Assembly: GCA_017591395.1 (NCBI GenBank)
Contig: WEDG01001497.1
Location: 62,001-126,000 of the forward strand
Length of the DNA stretch: 64,000 bases
DNA from: Schistocephalus solidus
Taxonomy: Eukaryota; Platyhelminthes; Cestoda; Diphyllobothriidea; Diphyllobothriidae
Reading direction: 5' to 3'
The translations under genes were made by a program, and so were the position numbers. Positions 3,001 to 63,168 of this stretch are shown here, one piece after another. The notes under the pieces are model-generated. The model was not told the origin of the DNA. It saw nothing but the letters and a program-made list of their open reading frames with translations, and ran no database searches. Within the stretch, counting starts at the first letter, position 1. Every line of letters begins with the position of its first letter.

Positions 3001-4547
3001 ATTTCAGAATTTCGGTCAACATTGCATGAGATAGGAAAGCTACTGAAAAATCATTTGTAAGCAACCTTTATTACTAGGTTTGGTTAGAATCATAAAGTTT
3101 ATTTACAATGAATGAAGTAGTTTTCGAATGCAAAAGATATCTTTCCAAATTTTGGTTTCTCAATACATTTTTGGCTAGTTGAATCATCCCATTCATCCTT
3201 ATCATCAATTTTATCCACTCAGTTCCCGTTAAAAATTTAAGCAAACATTTAAAATACCATTTTGTCAACTAGCATCTGACAAAATTGGACAATAAATCAC
3301 TAAATTATACATAACAAAGCAACATAATGAAGTAGATATCGTTAAGGACATGAGTTGTTATAAATTCAGTCATGTCTTTCTAAGTAAATATCCACTATTT
3401 CACCGCATCAATGTTAGAAGTTTTCACAGAACCATCACCCAAAGGAAACCAAAGAGAAGAAAATGTTGGGGCTCTTAAAATGCTCAAAACAGTGAAATAT
3501 TGCAGATGGTTTATTACGGCCAGGCAAAAGTGTGTTTTTTATGATGGAAAAACAGCGTTTGTGTAAAAAGCAGCTACCTTTCATGGTTAAACGTGTAGAA
3601 AGTTTTTATTTTCATCATTCTGTTTTCTTTTGAAATAAAAAAATGTCCTGCTAACAGCAAGCAAGAAAATGGAGTCCCCGTTAGTTCGTTGTGACACTCC
3701 AGATGGCTCAGATAAGAACAGAACCCATTAAACAACTACCACGACTATGAGGAGAAGAACATGCAAATATGCATGTTTACGTGGGTGATGCCTGCAGTAC
3801 AACCGAGCTTTTCTCTTTCCAGTCCATTTGTCTGGGTTTTTAAACGACCATTAACTCACAAAAATTTCCGGAGAGCCGAAGCAATTTTTGCGTGCGCGGC
3901 TCAAAGGTCTGCGAAAATAAAGATGGGTTGTAGCCTTGATGGATTTCTATCGGTAAACTGTGTACAGAGATTTTACATAATAAATTTTGCTCAACGTTTT
4001 TAAATATTTATGAACAGTGCGCCCAGGTGTCTGGCTACCCTTAAAAAGTGTATCCAGTGTAAAAGATCACTTCCCCTGTGCGTTGTTTTCAACAACGTTT
4101 GTCAATTTAGCCAGCAGGCATAGTTAAGGGCGTTTTAAAAGACTTTAGAAAATCGGGGAAAATACAAAGAGAAAACACAGTTACTTCCTAAGCTTTACCA
4201 AAAACTGCATTACTCCGCAAAAGCATGAGTGAAAAATGCATGCAAAATTTATTTCATTCGCGTTTGAGCGAAACGTTTTTTCAAAAAACTTTCTGGAGGA
4301 AACAAATAAATGTTTAAATTACGCTGTAAAGTAATTTTATGAAATTTAATTTTACGCAAATTATTCTTTGGTTTTTGAGGTCGTTTGTGCTTACTGCATA
4401 GAATACTTACGAGAGAAGAAATATACTCGCATTCTTGAAATAAATTTCCTCCTGAGAATTTAAAATATTTAAAAATGACGCAAGTTTATACGTTACTTGC
4501 ATAACCTAAATTAAACTTTACAAAGCTTGAAATTAGTTGATTAACGC
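1..4547. other. AT-rich non-coding stretch, no recognised feature
   Basis: I see no recognisable gene, RNA or mobile-element domain here. All open frames are 84 codons or shorter, scattered over both strands, and rich in F, L, I, K and N as expected for chance frames in AT-rich DNA. A short segment near 3671-3706 resembles 12915-12942 (shared core GTTGTGACAC then TCCAGATG), which hints at an old low-copy repeat. Confidence 0.6.
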
Positions 4548-4845
4548 TCACCGATCCGTTATGGCACCCACTCCTCCCATTCTGCCTTGAGGCTAACTCT
4601 CAAGTTCCGCCAGAAGGCGCAAAGCAGCTAGTATAAAAGGCAGAAGAATATTACCGAAAAAGACCAGGAAGTTAGATATGACTGACTGATGAGTGCTAAT
4701 AATCCAGAAATGACCATTCCAGTATCCCTTATCATTGTCGGTAATATTATTTTGCCTATCATAATAGCAGGTGCGCAGCTTCTCGCAGAGCTCAAGAGTG
4801 AGCCTCAGCGCAGAACGGGGCTTGCCCCTTAACCGATCGGTGAGC
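4548..4845. repeat. SINE-derived fold-back: two SINE 3' ends head to head
   Basis: The left arm (about 4548-4660) and right arm (about 4736-4845) are imperfect inverted copies of each other. Both begin or end with the GCTCACCGATC/GATCGGTGAGC motif, and both contain a CTTGAGGCTAACTCT-like block and an AATATTACCG block next to the centre. The centre is the SINE body with a hammerhead-like core on the + strand. By eye the arms match at roughly three quarters of positions. The arm sequence recurs as the 3' part of the SINE copies at 25.4, 36.0, 38.2 and 42.0 kb, so this looks like two copies joined tail to tail rather than a DNA transposon. A fold-back MITE is the alternative. Confidence 0.6.
4680..4724 (+). 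ncRNA. Hammerhead-like motif in SINE body (diverged copy)
   Basis: The CTGATGA core and GAA core are intact, separated by a 14-base segment that is a weak version of stem II. Stem I (GACTGA against CCAGTA) pairs only in part, so this copy is probably inactive. Its value is that it keeps the core although the surrounding SINE has diverged. Confidence 0.4.
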
Positions 4846-5024
4846 ATTTACCAACCAATACATTCATTTAACGTTAGTATACTGTTGATTTTATCTTATC
4901 AGTTGGTTTAGGATAAGGGTAAGGCATAGGTATTACCCCCAGCTAAAGAAATTTATCCTCCATGCATCTATGGTTTCTAAAGGAATTCTGATTCTCCTGC
5001 AGTTCAAGCCATAAGTCGGTCCAG

Positions 5025-5095
5025 AATGACATTACCGACAAAGACAAGGCAGACTGGAATAGCCAGTTCTGGCTTATTAGACGCCATTAGTCATC
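5025..5095 (-). mobile_element. SINE body fragment
   Basis: On the minus strand this holds the SINE-body signature AATAAGCCAGAA, then ATTCCAGTCTG, then CTTGTCTTTGTCGG. There is no tRNA-like head. The hammerhead core is degraded (CTAATGG in place of CTGATGA). It is a truncated old copy. Confidence 0.6.
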
Positions 5096-30760: not shown

Positions 30761-30790
30761 GGATAAGGTGGAACCGACAAAGACAAGGGA

Positions 30791-30836
30791 GACCGGAATG
30801 GCCATTTTCTGGCTTATTAGCCGTCATCAGCCAGTC
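30791..30836 (-). ncRNA. Hammerhead-like motif in dispersed SINE copy
   Basis: Stem I GACTGG/CCGGTC, CTGATGA, stem II GGCT-AATA-AGCC and the GAA core are all present. One extra A follows GAAA, which would distort the junction with stem III. It is probably weaker than the array copies. Confidence 0.5.
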
Positions 30837-30864
30837 ATATACAATCCCAGGTGTGGATCACCCG

Positions 30865-30918
30865 AGATTCGAATCCGCGATCTTTGGTCTTTGAGTGCAA
30901 CACTCTACCATTGAGCCA
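30865..30918 (-). promoter_or_regulatory. Pol III A box and B box of SINE
   Basis: The minus strand reads TGGCTCAATGG (A box, 30908-30918) and GGATTCGAATC (B box, 30866-30876), a near match to GGTTCGANTCC. Spacing is as in a tRNA gene. The flanking sequence cannot fold into a complete cloverleaf, so this is an internal promoter and not a functional tRNA. Confidence 0.6.
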
Positions 30919-31199
30919 CGGGCCCGTTGTTTTTGTCGGTTGCGATCGGGAATATGAATTATGATAGTGTGGGGTTTCACCGATCTGGTTAAGGAACACG
31001 TATGTTCCGCTGTGTCTTGGAGCTCACTTAAGAGCCCTCACGGGCCGTCGCATTGCGACTTAAGGTATATTTGGAAAAGGCTCTAAAGTGAGCTCCAAGG
31101 CACAGCCCGGAACGATCAGTGATATCATAAATCAGTATCGATATATCATAATATATATATTTATATATATGAATAAAGAAGGTTCGTCTGAAAATCGAG

Positions 31200-35995: not shown

Positions 35996-36130
35996 CACTG
36001 GGCCCATTCTTCTTTAAGCTCACTCTCTATTCCCGCCAAAAACCACACAGCGGCTAGTGTGATAGAGGGAGGAGATAACCGGCAAAGACACGAGAGATTG
36101 AGATGACCAGTTCTGGCTTATTGGCCGTCA
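35996..36130 (-). mobile_element. SINE 3' end and partial body
   Basis: In minus orientation this has the arm sequence (TTTAAGCTCACTCTCTA, GCGGCTAGTGTGATAGA), then ACCGGCAAAGACACGAG and the body remnant CCAGTTCTGGCTTATTGGCC. The hammerhead core is lost because the copy stops within it. Confidence 0.6.
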
Positions 36131-38114: not shown

Positions 38115-38335
38115 AGTCCGAAGCCCTCGGGTGGTGCACCACCTGGGGATAGGTATGACTGACTGAGGACGGCTAATAAGCCAGAAATAGCCATTCCAGT
38201 CTCCTTTGTCTTTGTCGGCCATATTCATCTGCCTATTCTACGACTAGCCACCGTACGGCTGCTGGCAGGGCTCACGATTGAACCTCAAAGCAGATCGGAA
38301 AGAGGGAGTTCCGTTAGCGATCGGTACAGGTCACA
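38115..38335 (+). mobile_element. SINE copy, body and 3' end
   Basis: The body motif CTAATAAGCCAGAAATAGCC is followed by TTCCAGTCTCC, CTTTGTCTTTGTCGGCC and the long 3' arm (TTCTACGACTAGCCACC, GCTGCTGGCAGGGCTCACG, AACCTCAAAGCAGA), ending in GCGATCGGTAC. It shows the full 3' arm of the second subfamily, which replaces the GTTCCATTCC end of the array units. The hammerhead core has one substitution (CTGAGGA). Confidence 0.7.
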
Positions 38336-42130: not shown

Positions 42131-42298
42131 AAATGAGTCCGTGGTTCAATTGTTCGGGCGTTTGACTTCTGATCAATGGGTCATGGTTTCGATCTTCGGA
42201 TAATGCACCACCTAAAGTTGTGTATAACTGGCTGATGACAGTTAATAAGCCAGAAATGGCCATTCCAGTCGCCCTTGTCTTTGCCGGCAATAATAATC
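42131..42298 (+). mobile_element. tRNA-derived SINE copy (head and body)
   Basis: The head begins GAGTCCGTGGTTCAATTG, and a B-box-like GGTTTCGATCTT lies about 45 bases on. The body has CTGATGA, GTTAATAAGCCAGAAATGG and CATTCCAGTCGCCC, ending in GTCTTTGCCGGC. The copy is old (several changes in both promoter boxes) but structurally complete up to the end of the body. Confidence 0.7.
42226..42270 (+). ncRNA. Hammerhead-like motif in dispersed SINE copy
   Basis: CTGATGA and GAA cores are intact. Stem III AUGGCCAU is intact. Stem I pairs ACTGG with CCAGT perfectly (Watson-Crick, where the array has one G-U). Stem II is weakened (AGTT against AGCC). Retention of the core in an otherwise diverged copy supports the motif being real. 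Confidence 0.5.

Positions 42299-51670: not shown

Positions 51671-51707
<37 letters not shown>
51671..51707. repeat. (AT)n microsatellite at left edge of SINE array
   Basis: An uninterrupted AT repeat of about 37 bases directly abuts the first array unit. A longer AT repeat abuts the other end of the complex. Confidence 0.95.
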
Positions 51708-51710
<3 letters not shown>

Positions 51711-51843
51711 AGTGTGGGGCTCACCGATCTGCTTAAGGAACATACATGTTCCGTTGTGCCCTGGAGCTCAGACTAGAGCCCTCGCAGGCGGTCGCATAGC
51801 GACGTGTAGCATATGATGGAATGGAACCGACAAAGACAAGGGA

Positions 51844-51888
51844 GACCGGAATGGCCATTTCTGGCTTATTAGCCGTCATCAGCCAGTC
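51844..51888 (-). ncRNA. Hammerhead-ribozyme-like motif, array unit 1
   Basis: Minus-strand order: stem I 5' GACTGG (51888-51883), core CTGATGA (51882-51876), C, stem II GGCT-AATA-AGCC, A, core GAA (51861-51859), stem III ATGGCCAT (51858-51851), T at position 17 (51850), stem I 3' CCGGTC (51849-51844). Stem I forms six pairs with one G-U. Stem II forms four pairs, but its base is a C-A mismatch where known hammerheads prefer G-C. Stem III is a self-complementary 8-mer, so a monomer would have only two pairs and a GGCC loop, while a dimer would have a full helix. The predicted cleavage triplet is AUU, an allowed NUH. A competing hairpin (CTGGCT with AGCCAG) could form instead. Confidence 0.62.
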
Positions 51889-51916
51889 ATACCCAATCCC
51901 AAGTGTGGCACACCTG

Positions 51917-51971
51917 GGATTCGAACCCGCGACCTTTGGTATTTGAGTCGAATGCTCTACCATTTGAGCCA
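51917..51971 (-). promoter_or_regulatory. Pol III A box and B box, array unit 1
   Basis: TGGCTCAAATGG (51960-51971) fits the A-box consensus, and GGTTCGAATCC (51917-51927) is an exact B box. The D-arm stem GCTC/GAGC can form, but the T stem keeps only three pairs and the acceptor stem does not close, so this is a tRNA-derived internal promoter. B boxes at matching places are 52217-52227, 52520-52530, 52823-52833, 53127-53137 and 53425-53435. Confidence 0.75.
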
Positions 51972-52145
51972 CGGGCTCGTTGTTTTGTCGGTTGTGATCG
52001 GGAATATGATGATAGTGTGGGGCTCACCGATCGCTTAAGGAACATACATGTTCCGTTGTGCCCTGGAGCTCAGACTAGAGCCCTCGCAGGCGGTCGCATA
52101 GCGACGTGTAGCATATGATGGAATGGAACCGACAAAGACAAGGGA

Positions 52146-52190
52146 GACCGGAATGGCCATTTCTGGCTTATTAGCCGTCATCAGCCAGTC
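52146..52190 (-). ncRNA. Hammerhead-like motif, array unit 2
   Basis: Identical to the unit 1 motif in core and all stems, although unit 2 has small deletions on both sides of it. Confidence 0.6.
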
Positions 52191-52446
52191 ATACCCAATC
52201 CCGCGTGGCACACCTGGGATTCGAACCCGCGACCTTTGGTATTTGAGTCGAATGCTCTACCATTTGAGCCACGGGCTCGTTGTTTTGTCGGTTGTGATCG
52301 GGAATATGATGATAGTGTGGGGCTCACCGATCTGCTTAAGGAACATGCATGTTCCGTTGTGCCCTGGAGCTCAGACTAGAGCCCTCGCAGGCGGTCGCAT
52401 AGCGACGTGTAGCATATGATGGAATGGAACCGACAAAGACAAGGGA

Positions 52447-52491
52447 GACCGGAATGGCCATTTCTGGCTTATTAGCCGTCATCAGCCAGTC
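52447..52491 (-). ncRNA. Hammerhead-like motif, array unit 3
   Basis: Identical to the unit 1 motif. The distance from unit 1, 603 bases, is two repeat periods, so cleavage in tandem transcripts would release unit-length RNAs of about 300 nt. Confidence 0.6.
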
Positions 52492-52749
52492 ATACCCAAT
52501 CCCAAGTGTGGCACACCTGGGATTCGAACCCGCGACCTTTGGTATTTGAGTCGAATGCTCTACCATTTGAGCCACGGGCTCGTTGTTTTGTCGGTTGTGA
52601 TCGGGAATATGATGATAGTGTGGGGCTCACCGATCTGCTTAAGGAACATGCATGTTCCGTTGTGCCCTGGAGCTCAGACTAGAGCCCTCGCAGGCGGTCG
52701 CATAGCGACGTGTAGCATATGATGGAATGGAACCGACAAAGACAAGGGA

Positions 52750-52794
52750 GACCGGAATGGCCATTTCTGGCTTATTAGCCGTCATCAGCCAGTC
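52750..52794 (-). ncRNA. Hammerhead-like motif, array unit 4
   Basis: Identical to the unit 1 motif; 303 bases from the unit 3 motif. Confidence 0.6.
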
Positions 52795-53053
52795 ATACCC
52801 AATCCCAAGTGTGGCACACCTGGGATTCGAACCCGCGACCTTTGGTATTTGAGTCGAATGCTCTACCATTTGAGCCACGGGCTCGTTGTTTTTGTCGGTT
52901 GTGATCGGGAATATGATGATAGTGTGGGGCTCACCGATCTGCTTAAGGAACATGCATGTTCCGTTGTGCCCTGGAGCTCAGACTAGAGCCCTCGCAGGCG
53001 GTCGCATAGCGACGTGTAGCATATGATGGAATGGAACCGACAAAGACAAGGGA

Positions 53054-53098
53054 GACCGGAATGGCCATTTCTGGCTTATTAGCCGTCATCAGCCAGTC
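53054..53098 (-). ncRNA. Hammerhead-like motif, array unit 5
   Basis: Identical to the unit 1 motif; 304 bases from the unit 4 motif. Confidence 0.6.
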
Positions 53099-53357
53099 AT
53101 ACCCAATCCCAAGTGTGGCACACCTGGGATTCGAACCCGCGACCTTTGGTATTTGAGTCGAATGCTCTACCATTTGAGCCACGGGCTCGTTGTTTTTGTC
53201 GGTTGTGATCGGGAATATGATGATAGTGTGGGCTCACCGATCTGCTTAAGGAACATGCATGTTCCGTTGTGCCCCTGGAGCTCAGACTAGAGCCCTCGCA
53301 GGCGGTCGCATAGCGACGTGTAGCATATGATGGAACGGTACCGACATGCCAAAGGGA

Positions 53358-53398
53358 GACCGAATGCCATTTCTGGCTTATTAGCCGATCAGCCAGTC
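53358..53398 (-). ncRNA. Broken hammerhead-like motif, array unit 6
   Basis: Deletions remove part of the core (CTGATC replaces CTGATGA), one base of stem III and one base of stem I. It cannot fold as a hammerhead. The cluster of single-base losses resembles either decay or uncorrected sequencing error. Confidence 0.5.
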
Positions 53399-53535
53399 AT
53401 AATCAATCCTGCAGTGCACACCTGGGATTCGAACCCGCGACCTTTGGTATTTGAGTCGAATGCTGTACCATTTGAGCCACGGGCTCGTTGTTTTGTCGGT
53501 TGTGATCGGGAATATGATGATAGTGTGGGGCTCAC

Positions 53536-54284
53536 ATGGTAGAGCATTCAAATGGTAGAGCATTCGACTCAAATACCAAAGGTCGTGGTCTCGAATCCCA
53601 GGTGTGCCACACTCTGGGATTGGGCATGACTGGCTGATGACGGCTAATGTCAGAAATGGCCATTCCGGTCTCCCTTGTCTTTGTCGGTTCCATTCCATCA
53701 TATGCCACACGTCGCCATGCGACCGCCCGCGAGGGCTCTAGTCTGAGCTCCAGGGCACAACGGAACATGTATGTTCCGTCTGAGCCACGAATCGGTGATC
53801 TTCGCGCGCGATCAGCAATCCGATGATAGTGTACAAAACAACGAGCCCGTGGCTCCAGTCGGTAGAGCATTCGACTCAAATACCAAAGGTCGCGGGTTCG
53901 AATCCCAGGTGTTACCACTTGGGATTAGCATGACTGTGATGACGGCCAAGCCAGAAATGGCCATTCCGCACTTTGTCTGTTCATTTGCTCATTCTTATCT
54001 CCAGTCATGCTATGCCTGTTCACCGCGACGAGGCTCTTAGTCTGAGCTCCAGGGTGCGATAAACTGGAACATGTATGTTCCTGGCATAAGCATGTCGGTA
54101 GCCCCACATATCATCATATTCCCCGATCGACAACCGACTAAAAACAACGAGCCCATGTTCAATGGTAGAGCATTTCGACTCCAAAACCATAAGTCGATGT
54201 GGGTTCGAATCCCAGGTGCGCTACAATTTGGGATTGGGTATGACTGCTGATGACGGCCAATCATTCAGAAATGTCGGTTCCATT

Positions 54285-54286
<2 letters not shown>
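53536..54286 (+). repeat. Inverted part of the SINE array (2.5 diverged units)
   Basis: Here the same units run on the plus strand, so the whole complex is an inverted array with its centre near 53535. Unit A (53536-about 53840) starts with a short local duplication (GGTAGAGCATTC twice). Unit B (about 53845-54140) has an exact B box at 53895-53905. Unit C (about 54146-54286) has an exact B box at 54202-54212 and ends at TTCCATTCC followed by AT repeats, the same tail as the 30.8-kb copy. Compared with the left units these carry many small indels and substitutions. Confidence 0.85.
53628..53670 (+). ncRNA. Hammerhead-like motif, inverted unit A
   Basis: Stem I GACTGG/CCGGTC, CTGATGA, GAA and AUGGCCAU are present. 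Stem II has lost bases (GGCTAATGTCA) and is doubtful. Units B (53932-53969) and C (54242-54280) are more damaged: B reads CTGTGATGA and C has lost stem I on its 3' side. Confidence 0.4.

Positions 54287-54342
<56 letters not shown>
54287..54342. repeat. (AT)28 microsatellite
   Basis: An uninterrupted AT repeat between the SINE array and the inverted-repeat element. It may have grown from the SINE's AT tail. It generates the artificial Ile-Tyr repeat frames on both strands. Confidence 0.97.
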
Positions 54343-54346
<4 letters not shown>

Positions 54347-54851
54347 AGAAGAGGCAATCACGGGAACCATGTTTATATTGTCCTGACGTTTCAAAATCAA
54401 ACAAGATTTCATCGTCGGAGGTAAATATTGTACCACGCCTCACAGTATTTATAGGTGGAAACATTTCGGTTAATACGGGATTACTAAGATTTTTGAATTT
54501 TGCACACAGGAGGGGCTGGGTAGGGGGTGGAGATCCTCAGTCATCATGCGGCTTTATGAGCAGGGTGGTATTTCATCCTTGGCGATCATCCTTTGCCTGT
54601 TCACCGAGTCCGTGGTGGACTGGGGGAGGGCGCATGATGGCTTATTCTCAATGTGGTCTAGGGCCGGCGCTCGCACGTTGGCAGTAGTCGTCAGTACTCT
54701 CATCGACCGAAGCTGACGCCCCAGGCTGTTAATCATGGTTGCGATCACACCTCAGTGTGTATTCGCACCTGCCGGATAATATTTATAAATATATTGCTGA
54801 TAGAAGCAAAGATGCGTGTCCCCGGACATAAATGAGAAGATCGCCTTTTCT

Positions 54852-63063: not shown

Positions 63064-63168
63064 CAAAAAAGACAAGGGAGTCTGAAATGGGCATTTCTGG
63101 CTTAGAAGCCGTCATCAGCCAGTCATACCCGACCCATGTAGTGCACCACCCTGGGCTCGAATCCGAAT
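63064..63168 (-). mobile_element. SINE copy, B-box half of head plus body
   Basis: In minus orientation: GGATTCGAGCC (B box with one change), GGGTATGACTGGCTGATGAC, CTAAGCCAGAAATGCCCAT and CTCCCTTGTCTTT. The A-box half is missing and has been replaced by a CT repeat. At 63225-63300 a block (AAAGTGACCTCCAAGGCCC, CGGAACGATTGGTACCCG) resembles those at 31.08 and 40.31 kb. Confidence 0.65.
63080..63124 (-). ncRNA. Hammerhead-like motif in dispersed SINE copy
   Basis: CTGATGA and GAA are intact. Stem II is GGCTT/AAGCC, changed in sequence from the array but longer and fully paired. Stem III reads ATGCCCAT and stem I (GACTGG with TCAGAC) is weaker. Pairing kept in stem II despite sequence change is the most useful comparison to the array. 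Confidence 0.45.

What the first reader, a model, noticed from the sequence alone, without database searches (positions are those of the whole stretch)
51708..54286. Tandem tRNA-SINE satellite whose units carry a hammerhead-ribozyme-like fold
Each unit holds a pol III internal promoter and, about 30 bases beyond the B box, CUGAUGA, a 4-bp stem II with AAUA loop, GAA, a self-complementary stem III, then a stem I strand that pairs back over six positions. Five units carry it intact. The combination of both cores, correct order and complementary stem I is unlikely by chance. Schistosome Sm-alpha SINE/satellites are a known precedent for a pol III SINE with a hammerhead. If active, tandem transcripts would be cut into RNAs of about 303 nt. 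Weak points are the C-A pair at the base of stem II, the very short stem III (which may need dimers), and a competing hairpin.
Basis: partly seen in the sequence, partly recalled or inferred. Interest (0 to 1): 0.92.

Follow-up and report, generated by a model that had tools for sequence, protein, structure and literature searches.

The report
tRNA-SINE satellite with hammerhead-like motif
A short mobile element of an unnamed eukaryote sits here in tandem copies that look as if they were pasted in as multi-copy blocks from RNA, and most copies hold a stretch that resembles a self-cutting hammerhead RNA but has one wrong base pair, so whether it cuts is open.

Summary
Window 51702-54281 is a tandem array of ~303-bp tRNA-headed SINE units on the minus strand plus diverged inverted pieces. 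Five of six minus-strand units carry an exact type I hammerhead-like layout (unit q112-156), expected by chance about 4e-5 times per 64 kb (descriptor made after the fact).

A working hammerhead is not established. No Rfam hammerhead reaches its cut-off (best HH9, 17.2 of 52 bits). The pair 10.1-11.1 is C.A in 265 of 287 copies and the stems show no compensatory changes. In favour, 12 core positions are the least variable set tested in the domain (45 changes, 72.2 expected), though not significantly in 22 mostly dispersed old copies alone (28 against 33.7, p 0.13).

Beyond the brief: arrays look retroposed as multi-unit blocks into (AT)n. 19 of 49 tail-side ends fall at the unit's only two ATAT sites, head-side ends scatter, and 17 of 23 strand switches are head-to-head, as in twin priming. 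That fits the circular-RNA model for animal retrozymes.

My estimate is about 0.27 for a working hammerhead.

The parts
51702..53535 (-). head-to-tail array: six ~303-bp SINE units (51702-52001, 51999-52301, 52299-52604, 52602-52908, 52906-53212, 53210-53509) and a 29-bp piece
53548..54281 (+). three diverged units or pieces on the opposite strand, head-to-head with the minus-strand array
51844..51888 (-). hammerhead-like motif, intact copy 1
52146..52190 (-). hammerhead-like motif, intact copy 2 (stem I 52185-52190 with 52146-52151; CTGATGA 52178-52184; stem II 52173-52176 with 52165-52168; GAA 52161-52163; stem III 52153-52160; H17 52152)
52447..52491 (-). hammerhead-like motif, intact copy 3
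52750..52794 (-). hammerhead-like motif, intact copy 4
53054..53098 (-). hammerhead-like motif, intact copy 5
52217..52227 (-). pol III B box GGTTCGAATCC of unit 51999-52301 (q75-85)
52209..52278 (-). tRNA-like head of one unit: RF00005 24.9 bits, below its cut-off of 29
51672..51707 (.). (AT)18 at the left end of the array; joins a q298-type tail end
54287..54342 (.). (AT)28 at the right end of the array; the last bases before it (GGTTCCATTCC) read, by eye, as a q189-type tail end
30769..31059 (-). diverged copy of the same unit, parts of two adjacent units
38133..38218 (+). old dispersed copy, central domain best kept
42218..42287 (+). old dispersed copy, match confined to the central domain
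63068..63130 (-). old dispersed copy, match confined to the central domain
4677..5093 (.). two old central-domain matches, 4677-4742 plus strand and 5034-5093 minus strand
36077..36130 (-). old dispersed copy, match confined to the central domain

Best explanation
A tRNA-derived SINE whose units spread as multi-unit tandem arrays. SHOWN: units are head to tail; arrays on several contigs begin or end in (AT)n; many tail-side ends fall at the only two ATAT sites of the unit while head-side ends scatter; most strand switches are head-to-head; in the inverted arrays checked (L038, L045, L047) both arms share marker variants. INFERRED: multi-unit RNA (read-through or circular) is reverse-transcribed at an (AT)n target whose end anneals to one ATAT site, and a second, twin priming at the other site makes the inverted arm. 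The hammerhead-like motif is really present in the conserved central domain, but most likely does not work as a normal hammerhead today: it is a weakened relic or a chance likeness inside a domain kept for another reason.
For: ATAT occurs only at q186 and q295 of the consensus. Of 49 tail-side outer ends 11 lie at q297-298 and 8 at q187-189, 14 of these 19 directly against a run of AT by my reading; 29 head-side ends scatter from q1 to q270. 17 of 23 strand switches are head-to-head, at variable positions; 5 of the 6 tail-to-tail switches lie across (AT)n at tail ends. In L038 the markers 49A and 256T are in every unit of both arms that covers them; L047 has 256T and L045 (second array) 49A in both arms. 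11 of 16 runs of three or more full units are more alike within than between. The unit has no T4 terminator. Against a standard hammerhead: 10.1-11.1 is C.A in 265 of 287 copies and no covariation is seen; stem I is as variable as the rest of the domain (O/E 1.09-1.28); Rfam scores below cut-off.
Against: The 12 core positions are the least variable set tested in the domain (45 against 72.2 expected, stratified p about 0.001, stable when any one locus is left out). Variants found on several contigs avoid the core (0 against 3.3, and 2 against 8.0) while singletons do so only weakly (4 against 7.6, p 0.10, and 7 against 8.4, p 0.36). Measured against the whole unit stems I and II are mildly less variable too (0.83 and 0.84 by array; 0.66 and 0.70 by unit). 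The two stem III pairs are kept while its tetraloop varies. In the full-length unit stems I and II have pair probabilities 0.36-0.82 and about 0.5. On the array side: 30 of 49 tail-side ends are not at the two ATAT sites, many in old or locally truncated copies; five of 16 runs are not more alike within; markers 49A and 256T are mixed in some arrays (up to 0.69 and 0.33 of units) and occur on 8 contigs each; unequal crossing-over could also homogenise arrays.
Confidence: 0.58

Rival explanations
1. A working retrozyme: the motif is an atypical type I hammerhead (C.A at 10.1-11.1, U17, two-pair stem III) that cuts multimeric pol III transcripts, probably as a dimer. The ~303-nt RNA is circularised by a host ligase, and rolling reverse transcription of the circle into (AT)n makes near-uniform arrays.
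For: Exact register of both cores and all three stems, rare by chance. Core constraint. Near-uniform young arrays and shared arms. Published animal type I hammerheads have two-pair helix III with a tetraloop; one axolotl family has a U.U mismatch at the base of helix II and still cuts 22% in an hour as monomer, with dimers much more efficient (PMC7229834 section 15). Published repeat sizes 150-450 bp, and coral arrays from dimers to 62-mers (section 13).
Against: No Rfam hit over cut-off (none of 58 scored candidates genome-wide for RF02275). C.A at 10.1-11.1 in 265 of 287 copies and no compensation in stems. Stem I as variable as the rest of the domain. A shared variant with a broken 1.1-2.1 pair: G117A in 11 copies on 4 contigs. 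Other folds win in most sub-contexts tried, though not in q105-160 or the full unit. No array end exactly at q150/151. Core depletion not significant in 22 mostly dispersed old copies alone (28 against 33.7, p 0.13).
Confidence: 0.27
2. Ordinary satellite formed at the DNA level: a SINE was tandemised by unequal crossing-over, replication slippage or extrachromosomal circles that joined (AT)n tracts by short homology. The hammerhead likeness is chance and the constraint reflects some other use of the conserved SINE domain.
For: A satellite from a Nin-SINE is known in limpets (PMC11121367, parts 1-2 of 6). The central domain is the best-kept part of old dispersed copies. One array (L048) runs from q189 to q186, about a whole number of units joined to (AT)n at one ATAT site on both sides, as a circle joined by microhomology would.
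Against: Head-side ends scatter and differ from tail-side ends; 17 strand switches are head-to-head against a single tail-to-tail switch that does not lie across (AT)n; I would not expect a DNA joining process to favour one polarity.
Confidence: 0.15

Closest known systems
Sm-alpha / Sj-alpha SINE-like satellites of schistosomes
   Same: SINE-like elements in high copy number that bear a hammerhead motif, type I in Sm-alpha; in S. mansoni related to tRNA-Gln SINEs (passages in PMC2770079; PMC6155905)
   Different: there the motif was found by blastn with the Rfam motif and the Sm-alpha ribozyme cleaves fast in vitro; here it has a C.A pair at 10.1-11.1, scores below Rfam cut-off and is untested
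Metazoan non-LTR retrozymes (coral, mussel, axolotl)
   Same: tandem units of 150-450 bp, dimers to 62-mers in coral, type I layout with weak helix III; model of reverse transcription of circular RNA into cDNA of more than one unit (PMC7229834 sections 13-15; PMC7761336 passages)
   Different: here a tRNA head with a B box is present, the hammerhead is atypical, no RNA evidence exists, and ends in (AT)n with head-to-head arms are seen
PcH-sat of the limpet Patella caerulea, from a Nin-SINE
   Same: satellite DNA born from a tRNA-SINE with a conserved domain (PMC11121367)
   Different: 179-bp unit that holds mostly the 3' part of the SINE; no ribozyme mentioned in the two of six parts read; no sequence was available to compare
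Hammerhead_HH9 (RF02275)
   Same: best Rfam hit to the motif, 17.2 bits, core and stems in register
   Different: far below the cut-off of 52 bits

Membership tests
Hammerhead ribozyme, type I | catalytic core C3-U-G-A-N-G-A9, G12-A-A14, A15.1-U16.1, H17 (numbering and consensus recalled) | tested here: met
   five of six minus-strand units exact; 248 of 287 aligned copies have the core intact
Hammerhead ribozyme, type I | G10.1-C11.1 pair at the base of stem II (that it is G-C in nearly all is recalled) | tested here: not met
   C.A in 265 of 287 copies; U-A in 6, C-G in 3, the rest other states or gaps
Hammerhead ribozyme, type I | three stems with open-ended stem I | tested here: met
   I 6 pairs with one wobble, II 4 pairs, III 2 pairs, in the consensus
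Hammerhead ribozyme, type I | covariance-model score over the curated cut-off | tested here: not met
   none in the window at gathering or at E 10 in 3.2 kb; RF02275 17.2 of 52 bits; clan overlap may hide an RF00163 score
Hammerhead ribozyme, type I | compensatory changes in the stems | tested here: not met
   2 of 12 double changes paired; 56 of 157 changed states paired against 54.2 expected; power is low because copies decay after insertion
Hammerhead ribozyme, type I | loop I - loop II tertiary contact | not tested
   -
Hammerhead ribozyme, type I | self-cleavage | not testable with these tools
   -
Metazoan non-LTR retrozyme | tandem 150-450 bp units | tested here: met
   303-bp units; 34 hits in one 10-kb piece, L043
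Metazoan non-LTR retrozyme | type I hammerhead in each unit | tested here: inconclusive
   see hammerhead rows
Metazoan non-LTR retrozyme | circular RNA of unit length | not testable with these tools
   no RNA data; near-uniform young arrays fit it
tRNA-derived SINE | tRNA-like head with A and B boxes | tested here: met
   B box perfect at q75-85, A-box-like stretch at q31; RF00005 24.9 bits, under the cut-off 29; ARAGORN finds no tRNA
SINE superfamily with a conserved central domain (Meta, Nin and others) | shared central domain sequence | not testable with these tools
   domain q~105-174 is the best-kept part of dispersed copies, but no reference sequence was reachable (not held; some searches failed)

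The most novel reading that the evidence does not exclude
The conserved central domain of this SINE is a noncanonical hammerhead that tolerates a C.A pair at 10.1-11.1. It cuts multimeric pol III transcripts into 303-nt circles, and the arrays record the next step directly: rolling, twin-primed reverse transcription of one circle into an (AT)n target at the two ATAT sites of the unit.
Probability: 0.22. Interest if true: 0.85.

Novelty: new variant of a known kind. Interest (0 to 1): 0.5.

Why it matters
How animal retrozyme-like repeats get back into the genome is open: a review says their sequences show no conserved motif that would betray the helper retroelement (PMC7761336 passages). The array ends seen here suggest a concrete, testable insertion rule: an (AT)n target, two internal ATAT priming sites, head-to-head arms, and near-uniform units in young arrays. 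If the motif cuts, it would also give a function to a conserved SINE domain and extend the hammerhead rules at 10.1-11.1.

Tried and rejected
Chance likeness was tested by Markov sequence and conditional simulation. It is rare per window, but cannot be excluded given the post-hoc descriptor and an unknown number of windows read in the first stage.

Genome-wide hammerhead searches: RF00163 gave 4 places, best 24.4 bits at C59, and RF02275 gave 2, best 20.2 bits, none over cut-off. None of these six places is a locus listed; only C59 was read. Only 73 of 91055 and 58 of 40398 candidates were scored, so absence of the SINE there says little. RF00008 did not complete.

The competing 6-bp hairpin as the conserved fold: its arms are only slightly less variable than the domain (0.84 by unit, 0.87 by locus, all copies) and 18 of 66 changed states pair, expected 17.6; 4 of 6 double changes pair. 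The minimum-energy fold of q99-180: 123 of 383 paired, expected 139.2. Folding is not unusually stable (z -0.62 and 0.41).

Relatives elsewhere: none in phages, plasmids or, by exact patterns, viral contigs. Three genome-contig pattern hits are about the number expected by chance by my own estimate (about 4) and were not examined. A small nucleolar box C reading of TGATGA was considered from memory only; no match to this stretch of that kind appeared in the Rfam lists.

Window ORFs of 150 aa or more (3 of 3) have no Pfam match. A GIY-YIG search for a Penelope-type helper gave 5 weak matches from 150 of 1471 candidates scored and settles nothing. The organism was not identified.
Full report
WHAT IS THERE. 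The window lies in an unnamed assembly of 603.7 Mb in 8019 contigs, a eukaryote by its SINEs and size (inference). Positions 51702-53535 hold a 303-bp head-to-tail repeat on the minus strand, followed by three diverged inverted pieces to 54281. (AT)18 lies directly at the left end and (AT)28 a few bases beyond the right end. The unit has a tRNA-like head (RF00005 24.9 bits, under the cut-off 29), a perfect B box and no run of four T. Several other contigs carry such arrays: 160 matches came from the 40 of 2885 first-look candidates that were scored, and not all are listed. The central part, about q105-174, is the best-kept part of dispersed old copies in the window. Whether it is one of the published SINE domains could not be checked: those papers are not held.

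THE MOTIF. Five of six minus-strand units carry the exact layout reported. Unit positions: stem I 112-117 with 151-156; CTGATGA 118-124; 10.1 and 11.1 at 125 and 138; stem II 126-129 with 134-137; GAA 139-141; stem III 142-149 (two pairs and a GGCC tetraloop); H17 at 150. By simulation this layout, bad pair allowed, is expected 4.3e-5 times per 64 kb. The descriptor was written after the fact. The best Rfam match is RF02275 at 17.2 bits (cut-off 52), E 0.033 for 91 bases that were chosen because they look like a hammerhead. Scaled by me to the whole window and to about six hammerhead families (number recalled), that is about 3 per cent.

CONSTRAINT. I compared copies with the consensus. Of 321 blast hits 265 span the domain. 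In these, 13 core positions had 4 changes against 18.4 expected in 230 young units and 16 against 33.8 in 35 older ones, counting a variant once per contig. Placed at every shift along the unit the pattern ranks 1 and 2 of 255 (1 and 3 when each unit is counted). Restricted to the domain and corrected for base and CpG, 12 core positions (N7 dropped) had 45 against 72.2 expected over 287 copies, variants counted once per locus (p 0.0005, 0.001). The older subsets alone give p 0.014 and 0.016. Leaving out any one locus keeps p at 0.005 or below. The two stem III pairs are quieter (14 against 20.6) than its tetraloop (43 against 30.1). Stem I is no less variable than the domain (83 against 68.2); against the whole unit stems I and II are mildly low (0.83 and 0.84 by array). 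Depletion sits in variants seen on several contigs (0 against 3.3, p 0.02; 2 against 8.0, p 0.006) more than in singletons (4 against 7.6, p 0.10; 7 against 8.4, p 0.36), as expected if selection acts when arrays spread. But A and B boxes show no such depletion overall in that class (A box 4 against 3.2 and 8 against 6.9; B box 1 against 2.2 and 7 against 5.3), which weakens the reading. In 22 mostly dispersed old copies alone the depletion is not significant (28 against 33.7, p 0.126). The sequences are the 20 pieces, the window, and 7 of the 30 loci; the other 23 loci lie inside regions already held and were left out. The domain alignment kept 287 of 297 hits, those that span the core.

STEMS. 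Of 157 changed pair states in the three stems 56 still pair, expected 54.2; 2 of 12 double changes pair. So there is no covariation, with low power because dead copies decay. One shared variant, G117A (11 copies, 4 contigs), breaks the 1.1-2.1 pair; A113G (9 copies, 5 contigs) and G153A (26 copies, 9 contigs) keep theirs. The 10.1-11.1 pair is C.A in 265 of 287. Folding depends on context. In q100-156, q86-160 and q60-165 the hammerhead stems have probabilities of at most 0.08; in q105-160 stem I has 0.30-0.69 and stem II about 0.45; in q22-175 0.11-0.26 and about 0.65; in the whole unit 0.36-0.82 and about 0.5. Stem III has none in any, and the extended stem III of a double hammerhead none in the dimer. 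For the bare motif the hammerhead fold is -6.5 against a minimum of -12.5 kcal/mol.

HOW THE ARRAYS MOVE. The consensus has ATAT only at q186 and q295. Of 49 tail-side outer ends, 11 lie at q297-298 and 8 at q187-189, 14 of these 19 directly against a run of AT by my reading; the other 30 lie elsewhere, many in old or truncated copies. The 29 head-side ends scatter from q1 to q270. No end is exactly at q150/151, the predicted cut; the nearest are a tail-side end at q152 (the window's own right end, which by eye reads on as a q189-type end) and head-side ends at q146 and q154. There are 17 head-to-head switches at variable positions. Of 6 tail-to-tail switches, 5 lie across (AT)n between tail ends, so they look like neighbouring insertions. 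Six inverted arrays have AT-rich sequence at both ends (window, L015, L022, L039, L045, L047; at the left ends of L015 and L022 it is short or interrupted), and each has one q298-type and one q189-type end (the window's right end read by eye). Both arms of L038 carry 49A and 256T wherever covered, both arms of L047 carry 256T and both of the second L045 array 49A; these markers occur on 8 contigs each, and are mixed in some arrays. In 11 of 16 runs of three or more full units, units are more alike within than between (the two arms of L039 count as two runs). I infer reverse transcription of multi-unit or circular RNA at (AT)n with twin priming. That twin priming gives head-to-head inversions is recalled knowledge. 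The retrozyme review proposes that a circular template yields cDNA of more than one unit (PMC7761336 passages).

VERDICT. The layout is real and rare, and its core is kept; but a defining pair is wrong, stems do not covary and no model reaches its cut-off. I put a working hammerhead at about 0.27, and a relic or likeness as more probable. The retroposed-array reading stands on its own evidence whichever way the motif falls.

LITERATURE SEEN. PMC7229834: passages and sections 13, 14, 15. PMC7761336, PMC6155905, PMC2770079, PMC10294476, PMC6887750, PMC5874043: passages. PMC11121367: parts 1 and 2 of 6. The MetaSINE paper and two related ones are not held. I make no claim that this element is unpublished.

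Noticed in passing
L054 54-127 (G000:C59:242753-242826): A separate hammerhead candidate in the same genome: RF00163 24.4 bits (cut-off 34), E 4.7e-4 in 181 bases, with GAAAC-ACGU-GUC, a layout I recall from minimal type I motifs. Not the SINE.
   Followed up: partly
window 54343-54456: The right flank of the array is a repeat of about 114 bp found also in L040, L048, L050 and L010; L040 matches over 439 bp at 91%.
   Followed up: partly
L041 7424-7560 and flanks of L042, L045, L047, L050: Another repeat of about 137 bp recurs next to several arrays in both orientations.
   Followed up: no
L040 1220-1324 and 9531-9647: Two pieces hold only the unit tail (q194-298 and q182-298) and share similar downstream sequence, as if the tail came from, or was captured by, another element.
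   Followed up: no
L034, L036, L037, window 4546-4845: Old diverged copies (about 60-75% identity) also occur as direct or head-to-head pairs, so paired insertion may be an old habit of the family.
   Followed up: partly
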